A program made the position numbers and the translations under genes. The notes beneath the pieces were generated by a model. The model worked only from the letters and a program-made list of their open reading frames with translations. It searched no databases and was not told the origin of the DNA. Shown one piece after another: positions 1 to 19,735 of a DNA stretch of 21,869 bases (positions within the stretch are counted from its first letter, which is position 1; every line of letters begins with the position of its first letter). The DNA lies in the IMG/VR virus record IMGVR_UViG_3300038324_000026, positions 1 to 21,869 of that record. One strand, given 5' to 3'. Source of the DNA: a virus.

Positions 1-82
1 GTGCCTCCATCTCGTCGGTGTCCTCCCACGCCCACGCCTCGACCTTGCGAATCACCTGGCACCCCGGCACGTCGTCGTTCAC
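1..82 (-). CDS. Partial unknown protein, N-terminus only
   Basis: A reading frame starts with GTG at 82 and stays open to the window edge (27 codons visible, beginning MNDDVPGCQVIRKVEAW). Its start overlaps the stop of the XhlA-like gene as GTGA, the same arrangement used by several genes in this operon, so it is probably the next translationally coupled gene. I see no convincing Shine-Dalgarno sequence of its own. The visible part is acidic with several Trp and no recognisable domain. By position it could be a further lysis protein or an unrelated late gene. The call rests on the overlap and the open frame only. Confidence 0.5.
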   Translation of the reverse strand, partial: MNDDVPGCQVIRKVEAWAWEDTDEMEA

Positions 83-369
83 GCGAACAGCCAGCGGATG
101 AGGAACGGCATACCCACGGACAGCGCGGCGAGTGCGCCCGCCGTGCGCCAGTACCAAGCCAGAAGCTTTTCCATGTTGGTTTCAAGCTTGTCGATCGATT
201 CGGTCGAGCTTGCGATGCTCGCGATGTTGCGCTCGTTCTCGGCCACCTTCTTCACCAACGCGGGCACGTCTCGCACTTCGTCGGCGGTCTGAATGCGCGC
301 GATGGCAAGCTTGAGTTCCGCCACCTCCTGCAACAACTGGTCAACCTTTCCCTCTAATCGATCAGGCAC
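79..369 (-). CDS. XhlA-like membrane-anchored coiled-coil lysis accessory protein
   Basis: The product is 96 residues. Residues about 2-70 form a charged, heptad-like helix (KVDQLLQEVAELKLAIARIQ and onward). Residues about 73-95 are a C-terminal hydrophobic segment ending in RWLFA. This long-helix-plus-C-terminal-TM layout is that of the haemolysin XhlA family, which sits beside holin and endolysin genes in many phages and assists lysis. The GTG start at 369 is chosen because GAGGA lies 8 nt upstream and the preceding holin-like gene stops at 374; a longer upstream frame to 480 would overlap that gene and looks non-coding. A spanin-like role is possible, but no signal peptide or lipobox is present. 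Family assignment is by architecture, not by specific residues. Confidence 0.72.
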   Translation of the reverse strand: MPDRLEGKVDQLLQEVAELKLAIARIQTADEVRDVPALVKKVAENERNIASIASSTESIDKLETNMEKLLAWYWRTAGALAALSVGMPFLIRWLFA

Positions 370-373
370 TGTC

Positions 374-580
374 TTAATCCTCGTCTTGGGAGAGTGACAC
401 TTGGCCAACGTCGATGCGCTTGAGCCATCCCAGCAGGACCGAGGACATCGCAGCGGCGGCGAGCCAACCGAGCTGGTCAATGTGGCCCAGCACGAGAAGC
501 ACTGTCGCCACTACGGCCACAAGCCATGCAAAAAGCTCGCGCGGCTCGTTGAATCCTGCTTTGAAGTTTTCCCAGCTCAT
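374..580 (-). CDS. Small two-TM holin-like protein
   Basis: The product is 68 residues: a short charged N-terminus (MSWENFKAGFNEPREL), a hydrophobic segment at about 16-33, a short turn (HIDQLG), a second hydrophobic segment at about 37-53, and a charged tail ending DED. Two membrane segments and a polar tail fit a class II holin, which permeabilises the inner membrane so the endolysin can act. The ATG at 580 overlaps the endolysin stop as ATGA and has AAGGTGGGA upstream. It lies between the endolysin and the XhlA-like gene, which supports the lysis role. The sequence does not match a named holin family that I recognise, so the call is from topology and neighbours. Confidence 0.72.
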   Translation of the reverse strand: MSWENFKAGFNEPRELFAWLVAVVATVLLVLGHIDQLGWLAAAAMSSVLLGWLKRIDVGQVSLSQDED

Positions 581-1089
581 GCGTCCCACCTTGCATACTG
601 CTCGTAATACTCGTCGAATCTTCGGAGGTAGGCGCGCAGGTTCGGGATGCCCTTCGCGGCCTGTGCTGCGCTTACCGTCTCGCCAAACGTGATGTCGCGG
701 CCGGTTTCGTAAGTCTGCTTGATATAGGCGGCGGTGCCGGGTCCACCTTTCCACAGCGTGGCCACCGAGCGACTGGCGTTCTTGCAGCCAACGAGCCGCG
801 CTTTGTATCGGTCCACGTAGCGCAAGAACGCATTGATTGCGGCGGGGCCGTCGCCCATTAGCGCTTCGGTGGTGTCCTTGCCGTCGTCTTCAAATCCAAC
901 ATCGATGCCCGCCATGCGCCCCATCTGGAGCAGCCCGCAGAACTGTGAGCCGACGCGCCGAGCTCGCGCATTGCCTGCCGACTCGACACGGATGAGCGCA
1001 AGCACGGTCTGCACGTCGACGCCCTCAATGTCGTAGTCCTCGAGTGCCGCCTCTACGTCGTCAGCCCATTTCAGAACGTTGTCTCTCAC
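577..1089 (-). CDS. Endolysin, lytic transglycosylase (SLT/lysozyme-like fold)
   Basis: The product is 170 residues. The region VLALIRVESAGN contains the catalytic-type Glu36, followed by FCGLLQMG at residues 50-57, which is the ES...GLLQ motif of soluble lytic transglycosylases. Further on, VATLWKGGPGTAAYIKQ resembles the A-x-N-x-G-x-G...Y motif of the same fold. It probably cleaves peptidoglycan at lysis. No signal peptide is visible, so release would depend on the holin-like protein encoded next, whose start overlaps this stop. The GTG start at 1089 overlaps the preceding stop as GTGA and has a GGGGG run 7 nt upstream. A tail-associated lysin is an alternative, but its place between adsorption and holin-like genes favours an endolysin. 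Confidence 0.85.
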   Translation of the reverse strand: MRDNVLKWADDVEAALEDYDIEGVDVQTVLALIRVESAGNARARRVGSQFCGLLQMGRMAGIDVGFEDDGKDTTEALMGDGPAAINAFLRYVDRYKARLVGCKNASRSVATLWKGGPGTAAYIKQTYETGRDITFGETVSAAQAAKGIPNLRAYLRRFDEYYEQYARWDA

Positions 1090-2221: not shown

Positions 2222-2572
2222 TCACGCCGACGAAGAGGCGAGGATGCGAAGCACGCCCTTCTTTACGGTGAACGTCGTTCCGCTGCTGATGACGAAGACC
2301 TCATACTCGAAGTATCCCGGCTCCTGGTCCGTCTCCGTTGATGTGAGGTTGATCGTGATCTCGCCCGACGCTGCGGTCGTGACGTCAATCTTCGACGAAG
2401 CCGTTCCGCTGTCGATGTCGACAACGAGAGTCGTGTCAGAATCCCCCCGACGCCACATGTGCAGATGTGCAGCGTAGCCCGTCAGATCGAAAGCCGAGCC
2501 GCCCTTGGTGACGTTAATCACCCAGTCATTAAAGGCGTTGCCTTCATAGAAATCGAAGTCGTAAGCCGCCAT
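2222..2572 (-). CDS. BppU-like small baseplate/tail adaptor protein
   Basis: The product is 116 residues and rich in beta strands. The segment around FDLTGYAAHLHMWRRGD, after an N-terminal strand, resembles the Ig-like N-terminal domain of the BppU family, in which a DLTG motif follows a short extension and leads into a strand. BppU-type proteins join receptor-binding proteins to the phage baseplate, and the LamG protein lies immediately downstream. The ATG at 2572 follows a GGGGGG run with a 4-nt spacer (2577-2582), the signal shared with many genes here. It is the first minus-strand gene after the antisense lipoprotein locus, so it may be read by run-through or from its own promoter. Family assignment is tentative. 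Confidence 0.78.
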   Translation of the reverse strand: MAAYDFDFYEGNAFNDWVINVTKGGSAFDLTGYAAHLHMWRRGDSDTTLVVDIDSGTASSKIDVTTAASGEITINLTSTETDQEPGYFEYEVFVISSGTTFTVKKGVLRILASSSA

Positions 2573-2656
2573 GCGTCCCCCCGGACTTTTTGCGGTGTCG
2601 TGAATACTCTACCATCTAGGTCGTCCAACTCCAAGAACCCACCCCTCGGGGGCATC
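2573..2656. promoter_or_regulatory. Divergent intergenic region upstream of the lipoprotein
   Basis: This 84-nt stretch lies between the minus-strand start at 2572 and the plus-strand start at 2657, the only divergent junction in the window. It must hold whatever promoter drives the lipoprotein, since no other plus-strand gene is near. Candidate elements are weak: TTTTTG, 17 nt, TACCAT on the plus strand matches a sigma70-type promoter poorly. It also contains G-run Shine-Dalgarno sequences for both genes, at 2577-2582 (minus) and 2648-2652 (plus). I cannot place a promoter with confidence. Confidence 0.3.
2648..2652 (+). promoter_or_regulatory. G-run ribosome binding site of the lipoprotein gene
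   Basis: GGGGG sits 4 nt before the ATG at 2657. It is the same G-run with short spacer seen before many minus-strand genes, and it decides this start over upstream in-frame codons reaching 2459, which would run back through the BppU-like gene. Confidence 0.45.
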
Positions 2657-3034
2657 ATGAAATATCTGACCGTTTTACTTTTCGCCCTGCTCTTTGCCGC
2701 CTGCGGCGATACTCAAGATGAGCCGAGCCTCGCCGAGTGCGTTGTCTCGTGTGAGCAAGGGCTCGACCAGTGCAAACACACCTACGACTGCGAAGCTGCA
2801 TGTCAGGCCGATCGCCAGCTTGAGCGGGCATGTCCCAACCAAACCGCCGAAGATTCGTGCTACGTTCGCTGTGTCGACAAGCTGGTCCCCGACGATGAAA
2901 TATCGGGCGACCCGAACCGTTGCATGATGGTTGATTCCATCTGCTCCGAACGCTGCGCCGAGCTGTACGCAGGCTGCGAGGAAGACATGAGCTGCCCCGA
3001 CGTGCCTTTCCCCGGAAATGTCGAGTGTCAGTAG
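2657..3034 (+). CDS. Cys-rich lipoprotein, antisense cargo (moron) gene
   Basis: The product is 125 residues: a short signal peptide (MKYLTVLLFALLFAAC) with lipobox-like FAAC and lipidated Cys16, followed by Gly17-Asp18. The mature part has 14 further cysteines, enough for seven disulfides. C28-C32-C39-C45 and C96-C100-C107-C113 have the identical spacing C-x3-C-x6-C-x5-C, and C45-x3-C49 and C68-x3-C72 are further CxxxC pairs, so the protein looks like an internal duplication of helical-hairpin units. It should be exported and anchored to a membrane facing the periplasm or cell surface. It is the only plus-strand gene, inserted between tail genes, and its stop overlaps the convergent tail gene by 7 nt. 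A role in superinfection exclusion or host surface change is inference. F at lipobox position -3 is slightly unusual. Confidence 0.85.
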   Translation: MKYLTVLLFALLFAACGDTQDEPSLAECVVSCEQGLDQCKHTYDCEAACQADRQLERACPNQTAEDSCYVRCVDKLVPDDEISGDPNRCMMVDSICSERCAELYAGCEEDMSCPDVPFPGNVECQ

Positions 3035-3648
3035 CCACGGGGTAAGCTCGCGTCGTCGGATGCTGTGAGTCGGTACTCGTGCCCGTGGTCTGCGTAAACC
3101 GTGCCCGTACTCGGCGAGCTGGTTGAGCGCCCTTCAGCGTAGACCGTGATCGTGCGCGGAGGTTGTCCCGCCGTCCCGCCCGCATCTGCATCCGCCGAAC
3201 TGATCGACAGACTTCCCGACAGCACCTCCACACCCGAGCCTGATGGAGTCAGCGTAATCGTGCCGAGCGTCGTCGAAGCTGATGATGCGTCTTCGGCCAC
3301 AATCGTGTAGCGGACTTCGCAGATCTCGACGACCGCAACGAACTCGAGGATAACAATCGTGCTGCTGCCGTTCTGTAGGTCACGCTCCAGCGAGAGGCAC
3401 GGGTGCCACGCCGACCAATCCAACGACGTGCCCGCACTGGTCTGCGTGAACGTCCCCGAAGTTGTCTGGAAGCTGGGGTCGTCGGTGTCAGGGAACGGGT
3501 AGAGCCCCGGAATGCGTGCTCCTGACTCGGCAAACTCGCGATGATTCGCGCGCAGAATCGTGCGCCAGTCCTCAGCGTCGATGTCTTTGGTGATGAGGTA
3601 CTCACCCCGCACGAACGACGGGAATTCCGATGGGATCACGGCACTCAT
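3028..3648 (-). CDS. Unknown tail-tip or fibre-associated protein
   Basis: The product is 206 residues, starting MSAVIPSEFPSFVRGEYL. A helical N-terminal portion (about 1-50) is followed by a Thr/Ser-rich, beta-strand-rich portion typical of tail surface proteins. I recognise no family. The ATG at 3648 overlaps the stop of the 1329-residue tail protein as ATGA and has GGGAGG 7 nt upstream, one of the few canonical Shine-Dalgarno sequences in the window. An in-frame extension upstream of it is rejected for that reason. Its 3' end overlaps the antisense lipoprotein gene by 7 nt. Coupling to the large tail protein suggests it is a partner or chaperone of the tail tip. Confidence 0.78.
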   Translation of the reverse strand: MSAVIPSEFPSFVRGEYLITKDIDAEDWRTILRANHREFAESGARIPGLYPFPDTDDPSFQTTSGTFTQTSAGTSLDWSAWHPCLSLERDLQNGSSTIVILEFVAVVEICEVRYTIVAEDASSASTTLGTITLTPSGSGVEVLSGSLSISSADADAGGTAGQPPRTITVYAEGRSTSSPSTGTVYADHGHEYRLTASDDASLPRGY

Positions 3649-10895: not shown

Positions 10896-10896
10896 G

Positions 10897-11633
10897 TTAG
10901 TCCCCCAAAAGTTCCGCGAGCTCGGCTTGGTCGCGCCGCTTGCGCTCTAGTCCGAGCCGTTCGCTGTGCACCTGCAACTCAATCTCGCCGATCTGAATGG
11001 CCCACCACGGTGCGGTATGGTCGACCCTCAGTTCCCACGACGTGCTCCCCCAAACGGAGAAATACGTTTCATACAGACTCTGCGCCTCGGGGTCGGCACC
11101 CCGCAGCTTGCAGCCTTGCGTGTCCTCCCCTATTCCTGAGCACTTGGCGCAGGGGCACCCGTCCCGGAGGACTCGGAGGAGGCTGGCGAGTTTCCCTTGA
11201 CCTCCTCGCGCAATCCCGCGGAGTTCTTGATCGCCGCAGCGAAGTGGAGCAGCTCAGTCGTGCTGTCGAGATGCAGGCAGATGTGGATGAGGTCGTCGCG
11301 GTCGAGCTGGTCAACCTCAATCGGCTGGCCGTCGGGATCCACAAGCCCCTCAACCTTCGTGATGTGATCGGCGCAGAACTCGGCGAGCGGTTGCAGATCC
11401 TCCCGCGCAATCTCTAGCACGAGAGGCTTCGAACCCTCTTCCCAGACCGCGGCCTCAAGCTTGCGCCCGAAAATGACGAGCTTCGCCTCCAGCCTCGACC
11501 GCTCGCGCTCCACCGACAGAATCGCATCCGTAGATGGCTTGCAGTAGGTGAAGACGAGCTGGTCTTCCTCGGGTCCGACTGCGTACGTTCCGCCGTATCG
11601 GGTGCCTTTGCTCTTGTCGTAAACGAATGGCAT
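10897..11633 (-). CDS. Tail assembly chaperone G-T, made by -1 ribosomal frameshift
   Basis: The 0 frame (11633 to 11130) can shift -1 at GGGAAAC, read as G GGA AAC, at codons 147-148. The -1 frame then stays open from 11190 to a TAA at 10897-10899, adding 97 residues to the first 148 for a 245-residue fusion. The extension has no good start of its own, begins LASLLRVLRDGCPCAKCSG with a CxCxxC cluster plus a further Cys, and continues with an aromatic/charged segment (PWWAIQIGEIELQVHSERLG). This is the lambda G/G-T arrangement, where the two products in a fixed ratio help the tube polymerise on the tape measure encoded next. The extension fills an otherwise empty 230-nt gap. The slip itself is inferred from the motif, its phase and the open frame. 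Confidence 0.85.
11130..11633 (-). CDS. Tail assembly chaperone G (unshifted product)
   Basis: The product is 167 residues, beginning MPFVYDKSKGTRYGG. It has a beta-rich N-terminal region, a central helical part rich in Glu and Leu (PLAEFCADHITKVEGLVD, then LIHICLHLDSTTELLHF), and a disordered Ser/Gly/Pro/Ala tail after residue 148. The tail is what the frameshifted product replaces. The gene lies between tail tube and tape measure, the invariant position of this chaperone. The ATG at 11633 has GGGG 6 nt upstream, and the gap to the tail-tube stop is only 12 nt. The sequence itself would not identify it without the position and the slippery site. Confidence 0.88.
   Translation of the reverse strand: MPFVYDKSKGTRYGGTYAVGPEEDQLVFTYCKPSTDAILSVERERSRLEAKLVIFGRKLEAAVWEEGSKPLVLEIAREDLQPLAEFCADHITKVEGLVDPDGQPIEVDQLDRDDLIHICLHLDSTTELLHFAAAIKNSAGLREEVKGNSPASSESSGTGAPAPSAQE
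11190..11196 (-). other. Programmed -1 frameshift slippery heptamer GGGAAAC
   Basis: The heptamer matches X XXY YYZ in phase with the G frame (codons GGA and AAC at 11195-11190), close to lambda's GGGAAAG. It lies 19 codons before the G stop. Downstream are GC-rich short stems, for instance GTCC TCCG GGAC starting about 17 nt later, which might stimulate slipping. I cannot judge a pseudoknot by eye. Confidence 0.82.
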
Positions 11634-13775: not shown

Positions 13776-13776
13776 G

Positions 13777-13953
13777 TCAGTCCCCCGCCAGTTCGAAGCG
13801 GTTGCGGCCTTCGGCGTACTCGACAGGCAGCGTCAGCACGTCACCTGGCTTGTGCAGCTTGCCCGACTCGTCGATGAACCTACCGCGCACGAGGCGGTAG
13901 CGCGCCGTCTTCGGCTCTTTCTTCGCCTTCTTCTTTTCGGTCTCACCACTCAT
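13777..13953 (-). CDS. Small 58-residue head-tail region protein
   Basis: This short gene begins at the ATG at 13953, inside the end of the connector gene (11-nt overlap), and stops 1 nt before the morphogenesis gene. The product starts MSGETEKKKAKKEPKTARYR, a Lys-rich tail, followed by a compact beta-type segment with LHKPGDVLTLPVEYAEGRNR. The KPGDVLTLP turn resembles small SH3-like phage proteins encoded near head-tail connectors. I cannot name a family. A GCGGGA sequence lies just upstream of the start. Tight packing, the absence of any other use for this interval and protein-like composition support it as a real gene. Confidence 0.75.
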   Translation of the reverse strand: MSGETEKKKAKKEPKTARYRLVRGRFIDESGKLHKPGDVLTLPVEYAEGRNRFELAGD

Positions 13954-16562: not shown

Positions 16563-17123
16563 TTGTTCCCCCTCTTGCTCATTGAGCGTGATTGTCTTGT
16601 CGTTGAGCCGAATGCTCAGCGTATCTTGAACCCGGCCGATGTCCTTCAGCTTCGGGTGTGTCGTCAGACTCGTCTCCCACAACACGCGGGCGTACTTCTC
16701 GCCCTTGCTGTCCTGGTATCCGCCGACCACGTGAGGCGAGATGAACTCGACCTCTTCGGCGAGCACTTGCTCCCACGTGTCAGCCTTCCACAGCACGAGC
16801 CCGTACAACTCATCGTTGGCAACCTTGGTGCGCTGGATGCTCCCGTAGGTCTTGCCACCCTCGCTCTTGTGCTCGCTCATGATGGGCGGCTTCCACGCGC
16901 TTCGGTCGTCCCCGGCCTCGGCTGCGTACTTCTCAATATTGGCAATCAGACGATTCGTTTCGGTGCTGATGAGTTCGAGCTCGGCCCGGTCGATCTCGAT
17001 CGGCTCACCCTCGTAGACCAGCGACCCGGCACGGAACAAACGCACCCAGCTCTCCTTGGGTCGCTCATCCGGCTCGGCAAGCTGCCAGATAGGCGTAAAC
17101 TTCGTTTCGACGACCGTCTTCAT
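16149..17123 (-). CDS. Prohead protease (Mu gpI-like) fused to a C-terminal scaffold
   Basis: The product is 324 residues. Residues 1-175 resemble Mu gpI-type prohead proteases: a strand opening, MSEHKSEGGKTYGSI with His85, LYGLVLWKADTWEQ, then EFISPHVVGGYQD with Ser129, and the LTTHPKLKDIG motif near 153-163. His85 and Ser129 are the expected catalytic residues. Residues about 188-324 are acidic coiled coil and low-complexity sequence ending in a conserved-looking basic helix, the usual scaffold part. The protease matures the prohead by removing the scaffold. The ATG at 17123 overlaps the portal-gene stop as ATGA and has GGGGG with a 4-nt spacer. A second product from 16562 is likely. Confidence 0.84.
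   Translation of the reverse strand: MKTVVETKFTPIWQLAEPDERPKESWVRLFRAGSLVYEGEPIEIDRAELELISTETNRLIANIEKYAAEAGDDRSAWKPPIMSEHKSEGGKTYGSIQRTKVANDELYGLVLWKADTWEQVLAEEVEFISPHVVGGYQDSKGEKYARVLWETSLTTHPKLKDIGRVQDTLSIRLNDKTITLNEQEGEQMEELAKEIMARFDALEAKVDAALGTVEAMDDDEEVEAMDEEIEAGDDEEEYSEDGAPSVDVAAAEAVAELRKMFSERFGKMEQAVAELSKRKATLLTDEPGGDDGKPEGQPSTIEGKIAQFRKQGMSQAEASIAARK
16568..16572 (-). promoter_or_regulatory. Internal ribosome binding site for the nested scaffold
   Basis: GAGGGGG with spacer AACAA precedes the in-frame ATG at 16562. It encodes the residues EGEQ within the protease, so the G-run could be coincidental, but its form and spacing equal those of the decoration gene downstream. Confidence 0.55.
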
Positions 17124-19735
17124 GCGTCCCCCTGCGCCCTGTAGAGCCTCGCAAACTGCACGAGCCCCCACGGCATCACGTCCTCGTTGAATCGCTGTGT
17201 GTTCCCCGTCTGGCTAAAGCCTGACGCCACCTCTTCGAAGATCTCGGCGTAGTCCGCTTCATCCGGCATGATGTAGCTGAAGATGCAGCGGCACCGGTTA
17301 CCTCCATCGCACACGCTCGGCGGCATGAGCTGGCGGTACTGGCGCGACCCGACGAAGACGCGGCGACCGTCAGCCGAGCCGCACGGGTCGCACGTGTTGC
17401 CGTCCAGCACCGAGCTATACTCGGCGATGATGCGCGGCTCCTTGCCGGGAGGCGCCCCGCGCTTGGATGCCTCGATGAGTTCTTTGACCACTTCGTCACG
17501 ACCTTGGCTGAATGCTGCGGCGGTACCTGCGGCCGCGTGCGAAGCGAAGGCGGATTGCGAGGGGATGGGGGGAAATGCCCGCTCAGGCGCTCCGTTCAAC
17601 TCGAGCGTCGTGCGCTCCAGCAGATACGCCTCTACGGTGTTGTAGCTGCGCAGTGCGACCGAGTCCGCAAGCTGGAGCGTGGAAGCCGTCGTCGGCGCGT
17701 CCTTGATGCTCTTCGGCACCTTCGGGATAGCCCCGATCTCGCGCGCGATGGACAGCCCACCCTTGGCTCGAAGCTCGTTGATGGCTGGCAGTGCAGCCTC
17801 GCGATACTGCGGCATCCACTCCTGACGGAATGCGTCACGCAGTTCGATCACTCGAGTCGGACTGGTCAGGCCGCGCGTTCGCTCGACCCACGCAGCGCGG
17901 TGCCGCTTGGCCAGCCTCTCGAACGCCTTACCGACCGCGGCGTTGGTCCTGTCGTGCGCGTCGTTGGCGTCGTCGACATCGAAGTCCGCGAAGAGGTTGC
18001 CCGCGGTCTCGTCGACGTGTGGCACTGTGTGAGCCGGGCAGCACTCCGAGGCGGTCACGTCGGCGGTCGACTGCTCTACCTGTGGCGTCGCGGCCATGCG
18101 CGCGGGAGCAACCATTGACTCGGCCGTCACGCTCGGGATCAGGAACGCGGTCTCTAGAATCTTCACAGCGCTGTCAGCGGGAAGCAGACCCTGCATGACC
18201 TGAGTAATGATGTTGACCACCGATTGCGCCTGTGCGCCGTTGAGAAGCGCAGCCTCGGCGGTTGCTTCGGTCTCTTCGCGCACGACCACAGGAAGCTTCA
18301 ATCGTTCGTGAATATGGTCCTGCACTTCGGGCGTGATGGTGATGAGCCCTTGGGTAGCCGCCGCCTGAATGTCTGCGAGCGGCACCTCTTCCTCGCCGAG
18401 CGAGAACGTCAGCTCAGGATAGGCCCCCGGCGCGACAGGCCCACCCATCGCGTCGACCATCGACCGTAGCGGCCCACTGCTCGGGCTGTTGTCGTGCCCG
18501 TTGAAGGCAATCGCAATCACCTGGGCGATGTAGACGGCGACGCGGAGTGACTGATCGTCCTTGGTCTCGGCGAGCGCGTACGATCCGGTCTTACCCGCGC
18601 CCAGCAGCGCGCCCTCGCTTGAAAGCGGCATCGAGATGTATTCGTCGCAAAGACGGATGAAGTCGATGACCGGCGGAAACGCACCCGCGGGGCTCAGCGT
18701 CTTCACGCTCAGGCCTTTCGGCAGAATGATGCTCTTCGGGTCGTCGCTTCGTCGTGCGTCCAGTACGTCCGCGACTAGTTCGGCGTCGCCGGTGTCCTCA
18801 GTGTAGTCCTCGGTCGCCTCAACGATGTCTTGCGGCGTACCGTGCTTCTCAACCGACAGCATGAACCGTTCAACCGCGAGCTGCTTCGCTCGCACATACT
18901 CGACCACCGACCGGAACGGCGAGAGTCCCTCGATGTCCGTCCCAATCTTGTTGGAGGTCAGGATGAGGCAGTCGCGGATGTCGACGATGTACTCACCGCC
19001 GTCCGTAGTGATGAACTTCAACGCGAGAATCTGGCTCTCGGACTCGTTGAGAATCACCCGGTCAATCGTGTTGGGCCTGCGGAACGCCAGACGCTTAAGC
19101 CTGCCGTCTTCGTGGTGGATGCGGAGCCATACCCCAAAGCCCGGAACCGTCAGCGAGTAGACCGCCTCCGTAAGAAACTGATTGAGCCCCGAGTCGAGAG
19201 CATCAACCGCCTTCTGGACTTCGCCCGCTTGAAGCTCAGCAGCTTCGGCGAGCTCTTCGTCAACTTCAGCCGGTCGCACCTCCCATATACCCGAGCACAC
19301 CGTCTGCATCGCGGAGTTAACCGGACGCTGGTAGACCGGCGAGGTCAGGTAAATGTTGTGGGCGTTGCCGTAGTCGGTCCGCAGGCCGCGCCACGTGAGC
19401 GGCTGGTCGTGCTCTCGGTGCTTGCCACGATACGGCCTGCCCGACTGGTAGTTGGTACCGTCGTTGCCCTGCTCCTCTTCAAGCGGACCGCTGCGCTCGG
19501 GAATCTCGTCGGACTCGGCCAGTGCCAGCCTCGTGCGCTCGTTGAGCGTCGAAGGCGGCGTCGTGAACGTGTACTCTTTCAGATGCTTCCCGAGTAGCCC
19601 GTCGTCGGTGAGCTGGTACTCGGTCCGCTCGTCGCGCAGGTACTGCATCAGCGTGCACGTGCCCTTCTCCGTCGCCCGGTCGATCCCGGCCGCTAAGTTG
19701 TAGCTGTCACGTTCCCATTGCTTGCGCGTGTACAT
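17120..19735 (-). CDS. Portal protein fused to a MuF-type minor head protein
   Basis: The product is 871 residues. Residues 1 to about 550 look like a DUF935/Mu gp29-like portal: YLTSPVYQRPVNSAMQ, FGVWLRIHHEDGRLKRLAFR, LILTSNKIGTDIEGLSPFR and LLGAGKTGSYALAETKDDQS, ending near FLIPSVTAESM. After a Gly/Asp-rich linker, residues about 600-871 form a MuF/SPP1 gp7-like domain with the Cys motif TCDPC (C782, C785), then PPSVC (C809) and RCRC (C815, C817), the family's metal-binding-like signature. These two are usually separate neighbouring genes. The portal forms the 12-subunit DNA channel and MuF proteins act in head assembly or are ejected. The ATG at 19735 has GGGGG with an 8-nt spacer. Confidence 0.88.
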   Translation of the reverse strand: MYTRKQWERDSYNLAAGIDRATEKGTCTLMQYLRDERTEYQLTDDGLLGKHLKEYTFTTPPSTLNERTRLALAESDEIPERSGPLEEEQGNDGTNYQSGRPYRGKHREHDQPLTWRGLRTDYGNAHNIYLTSPVYQRPVNSAMQTVCSGIWEVRPAEVDEELAEAAELQAGEVQKAVDALDSGLNQFLTEAVYSLTVPGFGVWLRIHHEDGRLKRLAFRRPNTIDRVILNESESQILALKFITTDGGEYIVDIRDCLILTSNKIGTDIEGLSPFRSVVEYVRAKQLAVERFMLSVEKHGTPQDIVEATEDYTEDTGDAELVADVLDARRSDDPKSIILPKGLSVKTLSPAGAFPPVIDFIRLCDEYISMPLSSEGALLGAGKTGSYALAETKDDQSLRVAVYIAQVIAIAFNGHDNSPSSGPLRSMVDAMGGPVAPGAYPELTFSLGEEEVPLADIQAAATQGLITITPEVQDHIHERLKLPVVVREETEATAEAALLNGAQAQSVVNIITQVMQGLLPADSAVKILETAFLIPSVTAESMVAPARMAATPQVEQSTADVTASECCPAHTVPHVDETAGNLFADFDVDDANDAHDRTNAAVGKAFERLAKRHRAAWVERTRGLTSPTRVIELRDAFRQEWMPQYREAALPAINELRAKGGLSIAREIGAIPKVPKSIKDAPTTASTLQLADSVALRSYNTVEAYLLERTTLELNGAPERAFPPIPSQSAFASHAAAGTAAAFSQGRDEVVKELIEASKRGAPPGKEPRIIAEYSSVLDGNTCDPCGSADGRRVFVGSRQYRQLMPPSVCDGGNRCRCIFSYIMPDEADYAEIFEEVASGFSQTGNTQRFNEDVMPWGLVQFARLYRAQGDA

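What the first reader, a model, noticed from the sequence alone, without database searches (positions are those of the whole stretch)
2657..3034. Antisense Cys-rich lipoprotein with internal cysteine duplication inside the tail region
It is the only plus-strand gene in a solid minus-strand late operon, wedged between tail genes and overlapping one convergently by 7 nt. After the lipidated Cys16 there are 14 cysteines, with C-x3-C-x6-C-x5-C appearing twice at identical spacing (28-45 and 96-113). Phage-encoded lipoproteins such as T5 Llp block receptors against superinfection, so this is a candidate surface-altering cargo gene of an unfamiliar fold. The function is inference; the lipobox, cysteine spacing and orientation are seen.
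Basis: partly seen in the sequence, partly recalled or inferred. Interest (0 to 1): 0.72.

Follow-up and report, generated by a model that had tools for sequence, protein, structure and literature searches.

The report
Phage-borne cysteine-rich lipoprotein, probable cargo gene
A phage from an unknown host carries, backwards inside its tail genes, a small real gene for a membrane-anchored protein packed with cysteines; it looks like foreign cargo that alters the surface of the infected cell, and its nearest look-alikes are cysteine-rich surface lipoproteins of myxobacteria.

Summary
Window 2657-3034 (+) encodes a 125-aa lipoprotein (LFAAC lipobox, Cys16) with 14 further cysteines. It is the only plus-strand gene among 20 minus-strand morphogenesis and lysis genes, and overlaps a convergent gene by 7 nt. 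It is a real gene: base composition is codon-periodic (no shuffle matches it), and it alone fills the operon's only large hole (455 nt). Its synonymous codon usage lies below every 125-codon stretch of the phage's own genes, which suggests foreign origin. The 'internal duplication' shares cysteines only and is marginal (p 0.007-0.04). No homologue was found in phages, plasmids, IMG/VR, Pfam, PHROGs, NCBIfam, PADLOC or PDB. The best lead is an 8-cysteine tandem module of myxobacterial surface lipoproteins, itself without a Pfam or NCBIfam model. Residues 28-68 fit six of its seven cysteine intervals, but the fit is suggestive, not significant after composition correction. Best explanation: a moron, an accessory lipoprotein expressed when the late operon is silent and anchored in the host envelope. 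Receptor masking or superinfection exclusion is the likeliest action but is pure inference.

The parts
2657..3034 (+). Cys-rich lipoprotein gene (125 aa plus stop)
2657..2701 (+). signal peptide, residues 1-15 (MKYLTVLLFALLFAA)
   Evidence: read from the sequence
2702..2704 (+). codon of Cys16, the predicted lipidated cysteine; G at +2, so no inner-membrane Asp signal by the E. coli rule
   Evidence: lipobox LFAAC; sorting rule from general knowledge
2738..2872 (+). first cysteine cluster, residues 28-72, intervals 3,6,5,3,9,8,3; fits the first six intervals of the myxobacterial 8-Cys module
2942..3028 (+). second cysteine cluster, residues 96-124, intervals 3,6,5,10; shares only Cys with the first
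2573..2656 (.). 84-nt divergent gap where a promoter for the lipoprotein would lie; no sigma-70-like consensus found; weak G-rich ribosome-site-like run GGGGG at 2648-2652, 4 nt before the ATG
3028..3648 (-). convergent neighbour (206 aa, unknown), 7-nt overlap
2222..2572 (-). divergent neighbour, PHROG 1084 (1.7e-10), weak BppU-N (baseplate-like)

Best explanation
The gene is a moron: an accessory gene picked up from outside and lodged backwards in the late operon. Shown: it is a coding gene with a lipoprotein signal, it is antisense to late genes, and its codon usage is foreign to the phage. Inferred from the signal: the protein is exported, lipidated on Cys16 and, with Gly at +2, probably carried to the outer membrane. 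Inferred from the even number of cysteines in an exported, acidic protein (25 D/E against 7 K/R): it folds as a compact helical protein held by up to seven disulfides. Inferred from position: it is made mainly when the late operon is silent (lysogeny or early infection), because late transcription would cross it head-on. Most likely action, inferred only: it sits at the cell surface and masks or alters a receptor or envelope component, so that related phages adsorb or inject less well.
For: Codon periodicity and cysteine content. The only plus-strand gene in the only large gap of the operon: 455 nt, the next being 234 nt, explained by a probable frameshift extension, and 167 nt. Synonymous codon score -0.08, with 0 of 288 equal-length stretches of the phage's own genes that low. 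Genes antisense to lytic genes are described as typical moron loci, and lambda bor and lom are expressed in lysogens (PMC7067206). Phage lipoproteins that block superinfection are established: Ltp of TP-J34 (PMC3952083). Cys framework similar to myxobacterial surface lipoproteins, which fits acquisition from a host.
Against: No promoter-like site found. Nothing in the window shows that the phage is temperate: no integrase, transposase or repressor is seen. No homologue in any phage, so there is no sign of selection for it in phages. No defence-family match. Function rests on analogy. A low codon score would also be seen in a non-gene, though periodicity argues against that.
Confidence: 0.5

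Rival explanations
1. It is a host surface lipoprotein gene, a one-module relative of the myxobacterial 8-Cys repeat lipoproteins, carried by chance or for a benefit to the lysogen unrelated to phage exclusion, such as surface interaction or stress resistance.
For: First six Cys intervals of residues 28-68 fall in the range of 43 family modules; five of them are identical to one module of L385. Profile score 24.7 bits without composition correction, above all 3000 full shuffles and all 23,817 held viral ORFs.
Against: With composition correction the score is 8.2 bits, reached by 9-15% of Cys-preserving or segment-permuted controls and by 18 viral ORFs. The last interval is 3 where 42 of 43 modules have 5.
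Confidence: 0.3
2. It is a lysis accessory protein acting like an outer-membrane spanin subunit.
For: Small phage lipoprotein; a lysis cassette lies 1.6 kb away (577-1089 SLT lysozyme-like); weak Rz-like match E 0.21.
Against: Opposite strand to the lysis genes, no Rz-like partner around it, not proline-rich, 14 Cys. Real Rz1-like proteins found in related phages look quite different.
Confidence: 0.04
3. It is a metal-binding Cys-rich helical lipoprotein, for example storing Cu(I) with reduced thiols like Csp proteins.
For: Four CX3C pairs and an all-helical, though poor, model.
Against: No Pfam match to any such family at E up to 1. Even Cys number and an exported location favour disulfides.
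Confidence: 0.06
4. The open frame is not a gene.
For: Plus-strand open frames are common here; synonymous codon score is no better than antisense DNA.
Against: Strong codon periodicity, lipobox exactly at the ATG, 15 Cys beyond any shuffle, and no credible minus-strand gene in the same gap.
Confidence: 0.05

Closest known systems
Phage lambda Bor (outer-membrane lipoprotein moron)
   Same: Small lipoprotein of a phage, accessory; bor is expressed from the prophage (PMC7067206). Bor's orientation against the late genes is from general knowledge.
   Different: No sequence similarity known; Bor is not Cys-rich; serum resistance is not relevant here.
T5 Llp and Cor of mEp167/phi80/N15 (FhuA-blocking)
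   Same: Phage-encoded envelope proteins that stop superinfection by acting on a receptor; Llp is a lipoprotein and Cor blocks FhuA (PMC9311878).
   Different: No sequence match; receptor and host unknown here; no function tested.
Ltp of Streptococcus phage TP-J34
   Same: Lipid anchor plus a repeat domain responsible for exclusion (PMC3952083).
   Different: Gram-positive host, gene in the lysogeny module, serine-rich spacer, no Cys framework.
8-Cys tandem-module lipoproteins of myxobacteria (L385-L392, L399, L400, L411)
   Same: Lipobox, acidic Cys-rich exported part, matching first six Cys intervals.
   Different: Cellular genes, usually several modules; last interval differs; residue similarity beyond Cys not significant after correction.
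Myxobacterial Cys-rich small lipoproteins (L251, L255)
   Same: Lipobox followed by 8-10 Cys in about 120 aa or less; L255 lies 8 kb from a Mu-like terminase remnant.
   Different: Different Cys spacing; chromosomal.

Membership tests
Moron (accessory gene of a prophage) | orientation against, or insertion between, phage genes | tested here: met
   only + gene among 20 - genes, filling a 455-nt gap
Moron (accessory gene of a prophage) | composition or codon use foreign to the phage | tested here: met
   synonymous score below all 288 phage-gene windows
Moron (accessory gene of a prophage) | own promoter and terminator | tested here: inconclusive
   no sigma-70-like promoter and no terminator after the gene in a consensus scan; other promoter types are not covered and the host is unknown
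Moron (accessory gene of a prophage) | absent from related phages at the same slot | not testable with these tools
   no phage with the flanking genes found
Moron (accessory gene of a prophage) | expressed in the lysogen | not testable with these tools
   needs RNA-seq; temperate life style not shown
Bacterial lipoprotein | basic N-tip, hydrophobic stretch, lipobox with Cys | tested here: met
   MKYLTVLLFALLFAAC
Llp/Cor/Ltp superinfection exclusion lipoproteins | sequence similarity to known members | tested here: not met
   no PHROG, Pfam, NCBIfam, PADLOC or phage tblastn match
Llp/Cor/Ltp superinfection exclusion lipoproteins | blocks adsorption or injection | not testable with these tools
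   needs plating and adsorption tests
Myxobacterial 8-Cys module | eight Cys with intervals 3,5-6,5-17,3,7-15,5-10,5-7 | tested here: inconclusive
   six of seven intervals fit; the last is 3 instead of 5
Myxobacterial 8-Cys module | significant profile score | tested here: inconclusive
   24.7 bits uncorrected, 8.2 bits corrected; controls reach the latter in 9-15%
Outer-membrane spanin | paired with an inner-membrane spanin in the lysis cassette | tested here: not met
   opposite strand, no partner

The most novel reading that the evidence does not exclude
A phage has captured a single copy of an undescribed disulfide-rich repeat module that myxobacteria use in large surface lipoproteins, and displays it on lysogens to interfere with the surface systems, including phage receptors, in which the multi-module host proteins take part.
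Probability: 0.15. Interest if true: 0.7.

Novelty: new variant of a known kind. Interest (0 to 1): 0.4.

Why it matters
If right, it adds a disulfide-rich class to the phage lipoproteins that alter host surfaces, in a phage with only distant relatives, and links phage cargo to an undescribed repeat module of myxobacterial surface lipoproteins. That module family, not recognised by Pfam or NCBIfam in the members scanned, may be the more useful result: it gives a profile for finding closer homologues and a testable structure.

Tried and rejected
Direct homologue searches of the lipoprotein gave nothing: viral contigs, genome contigs, phages, plasmids, PDB, Pfam, PHROGs, NCBIfam, PADLOC. Cys-pattern scans gave only low-complexity noise (in one search the reversed control pattern matched more often). 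Neighbour genes gave no close phage relatives. Distant terminase and tail-tube relatives, 160 loci, carry no comparable lipoprotein. The single-sequence fold was too poor to search with; its matches are meaningless. A minus-strand gene in the gap was rejected: the only long frame is arginine-rich with codon score -0.63. Most weak phylum hits, and the Planctomycetota hits, are not Cys-rich lipoproteins. Claims such as Fz domain (E 0.51) or PHROG 2087 (E 0.014) were rejected as chance. The alignment A4 could not be used to scan viral contigs.

Full report
1. The sequence. The window is a 21.9-kb virus record. Twenty minus-strand genes form a packaging, head, tail and lysis block: TerS and TerL (terminase, PHROG 2, 5e-31), a Mu-type portal (PF06074, 9e-16), tail tube (PF18906), a putative tape measure, baseplate-like and lectin-like proteins, and an SLT lysozyme-like protein. 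Relatives are remote: TerL 25-29% and tube 24-30% identical to Mu-like siphophages. The host is not known.

2. The finding. The mature protein is acidic, 25 D/E against 7 K/R.

3. Is it a gene? Open frames on this strand are common (32 of at least 125 aa), so length is no evidence. But base use is strongly tied to codon position (chi2 42.6; 0 of 2000 shuffles), Cys number exceeds every shuffle, and the minus strand offers no credible gene in the gap. The gap of 455 nt is by far the largest between minus-strand genes; the next is 234 nt, which is filled by a probable -1 frameshift extension, and then 167 nt. Synonymous codon use is unlike the phage: -0.08, while 288 windows from its other genes range upward from -0.01. 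Real but foreign is the best reading.

4. The duplication. The two C-x3-C-x6-C-x5-C runs share only their Cys. A repeat of three intervals arises in 0.7% of random placements and 4% of permuted intervals. I do not regard it as evidence of duplication.

5. Relatives. Direct searches found none. A six-frame search of two groups of genomes, the phyla of two Myxococcales-labelled MAGs, gave weak hits. One (L348, E 0.036) is a roughly 530-aa lipoprotein with about 50 Cys in repeated modules, one of which has the same first five Cys intervals as the window protein, 3,6,5,3,9. Using it as query gave seven more such proteins (six further genomes and a second copy in G371; E 1e-62 to 1e-85), and a module profile then found shorter and longer tandem lipoproteins, in 12 of 174 genomes of that phylum against 1 partial match in 114 Planctomycetota. 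That profile included the window module as one of 16 rows. No NCBIfam model matched the one representative protein scanned, and no Pfam family matched more than a single member, at best E 0.005.

6. Does the window protein belong? With a profile built without it, residues 26-68 score 24.7 bits, above all 3000 full shuffles, 98.8% of segment permutations and 97.8% of Cys-preserving shuffles, and above all 23,817 held viral ORFs. With composition correction the score is 8.2 bits and 9-15% of the controls, and 18 viral ORFs, reach it. Six of seven intervals fit; the seventh does not. The lead was also selected from many genomes. I call it suggestive, about 0.4.

7. Structure. A single-sequence model is helical, with CX3C pairs on or beside the helices, but pLDDT is 54 and no fold match is usable.

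8. Mechanism. Position and codon use point to a moron. Published work describes genes antisense to lytic genes as typical accessory loci, and lambda bor and lom as expressed in lysogens (PMC7067206). Late minus-strand transcription would run through the gene as antisense, so expression when the late operon is silent is expected (inference). A lipid-anchored, disulfide-braced surface protein could mask a receptor, as T5 Llp and Cor do for FhuA (PMC9311878) or as Ltp blocks injection (PMC3952083). This step is analogy only.

9. What could not be settled. No phage with the same flanking genes was found, the life style is not shown by the window, and expression was not testable.

10. Verdict. Observation confirmed; cargo reading likely; exclusion function unproven; a Cys-rich lipoprotein of this kind is new among the phages searched. 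Interest 0.4.

Noticed in passing
window 10896-11633 (-), slip site 11190-11196: The gene upstream of the putative tape measure carries a canonical -1 slippery heptamer, G GGA AAC in frame, and the -1 frame stays open across the 234-nt gap to the putative tape measure gene: a probable tail assembly chaperone frameshift (weak TAC_14 match, E 0.053).
   Followed up: partly
L385-L392, L399, L400, L402, L404, L411, L416-L418, L401: An 8-cysteine tandem module (C-x3-C-x5/6-C-xn-C-x3-C-x9-C-x5..9-C-x5-C) in myxobacterial surface lipoproteins, from 1 to more than 5 copies, once beyond a Ser/Thr kinase and membrane span; no Pfam or NCBIfam model recognised it in the members scanned.
   Followed up: partly
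window 17120-19735 (-): The 871-aa portal protein matches Mu portal (PF06074) and, near its C-terminus, weakly a Mu F-like or PHROG 595 domain (7e-6): a probable portal-MuF fusion.
   Followed up: no
window 79-1089 (-): Lysis cassette: coiled-coil protein with a C-terminal membrane span (weak XhlA-like), a holin-like two-span frame, and an SLT lysozyme-like protein.
   Followed up: no
window 13776-13942: A 167-nt gap between head-tail genes with no assigned gene.
   Followed up: no
L255 1266-1631 (G012 contig C84): A chromosomal 121-aa Cys-rich lipoprotein (10 Cys) lies about 8 kb from a Mu-like transposase, terminase and portal remnant in a Myxococcales MAG.
   Followed up: partly
L218 (record titled Comamonas sp. 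KCTC 72670): The contig carries an encapsulin 96% identical, over the 71 residues compared, to the Myxococcus segment used as query, so the record is probably mislabelled or contaminated.
   Followed up: no
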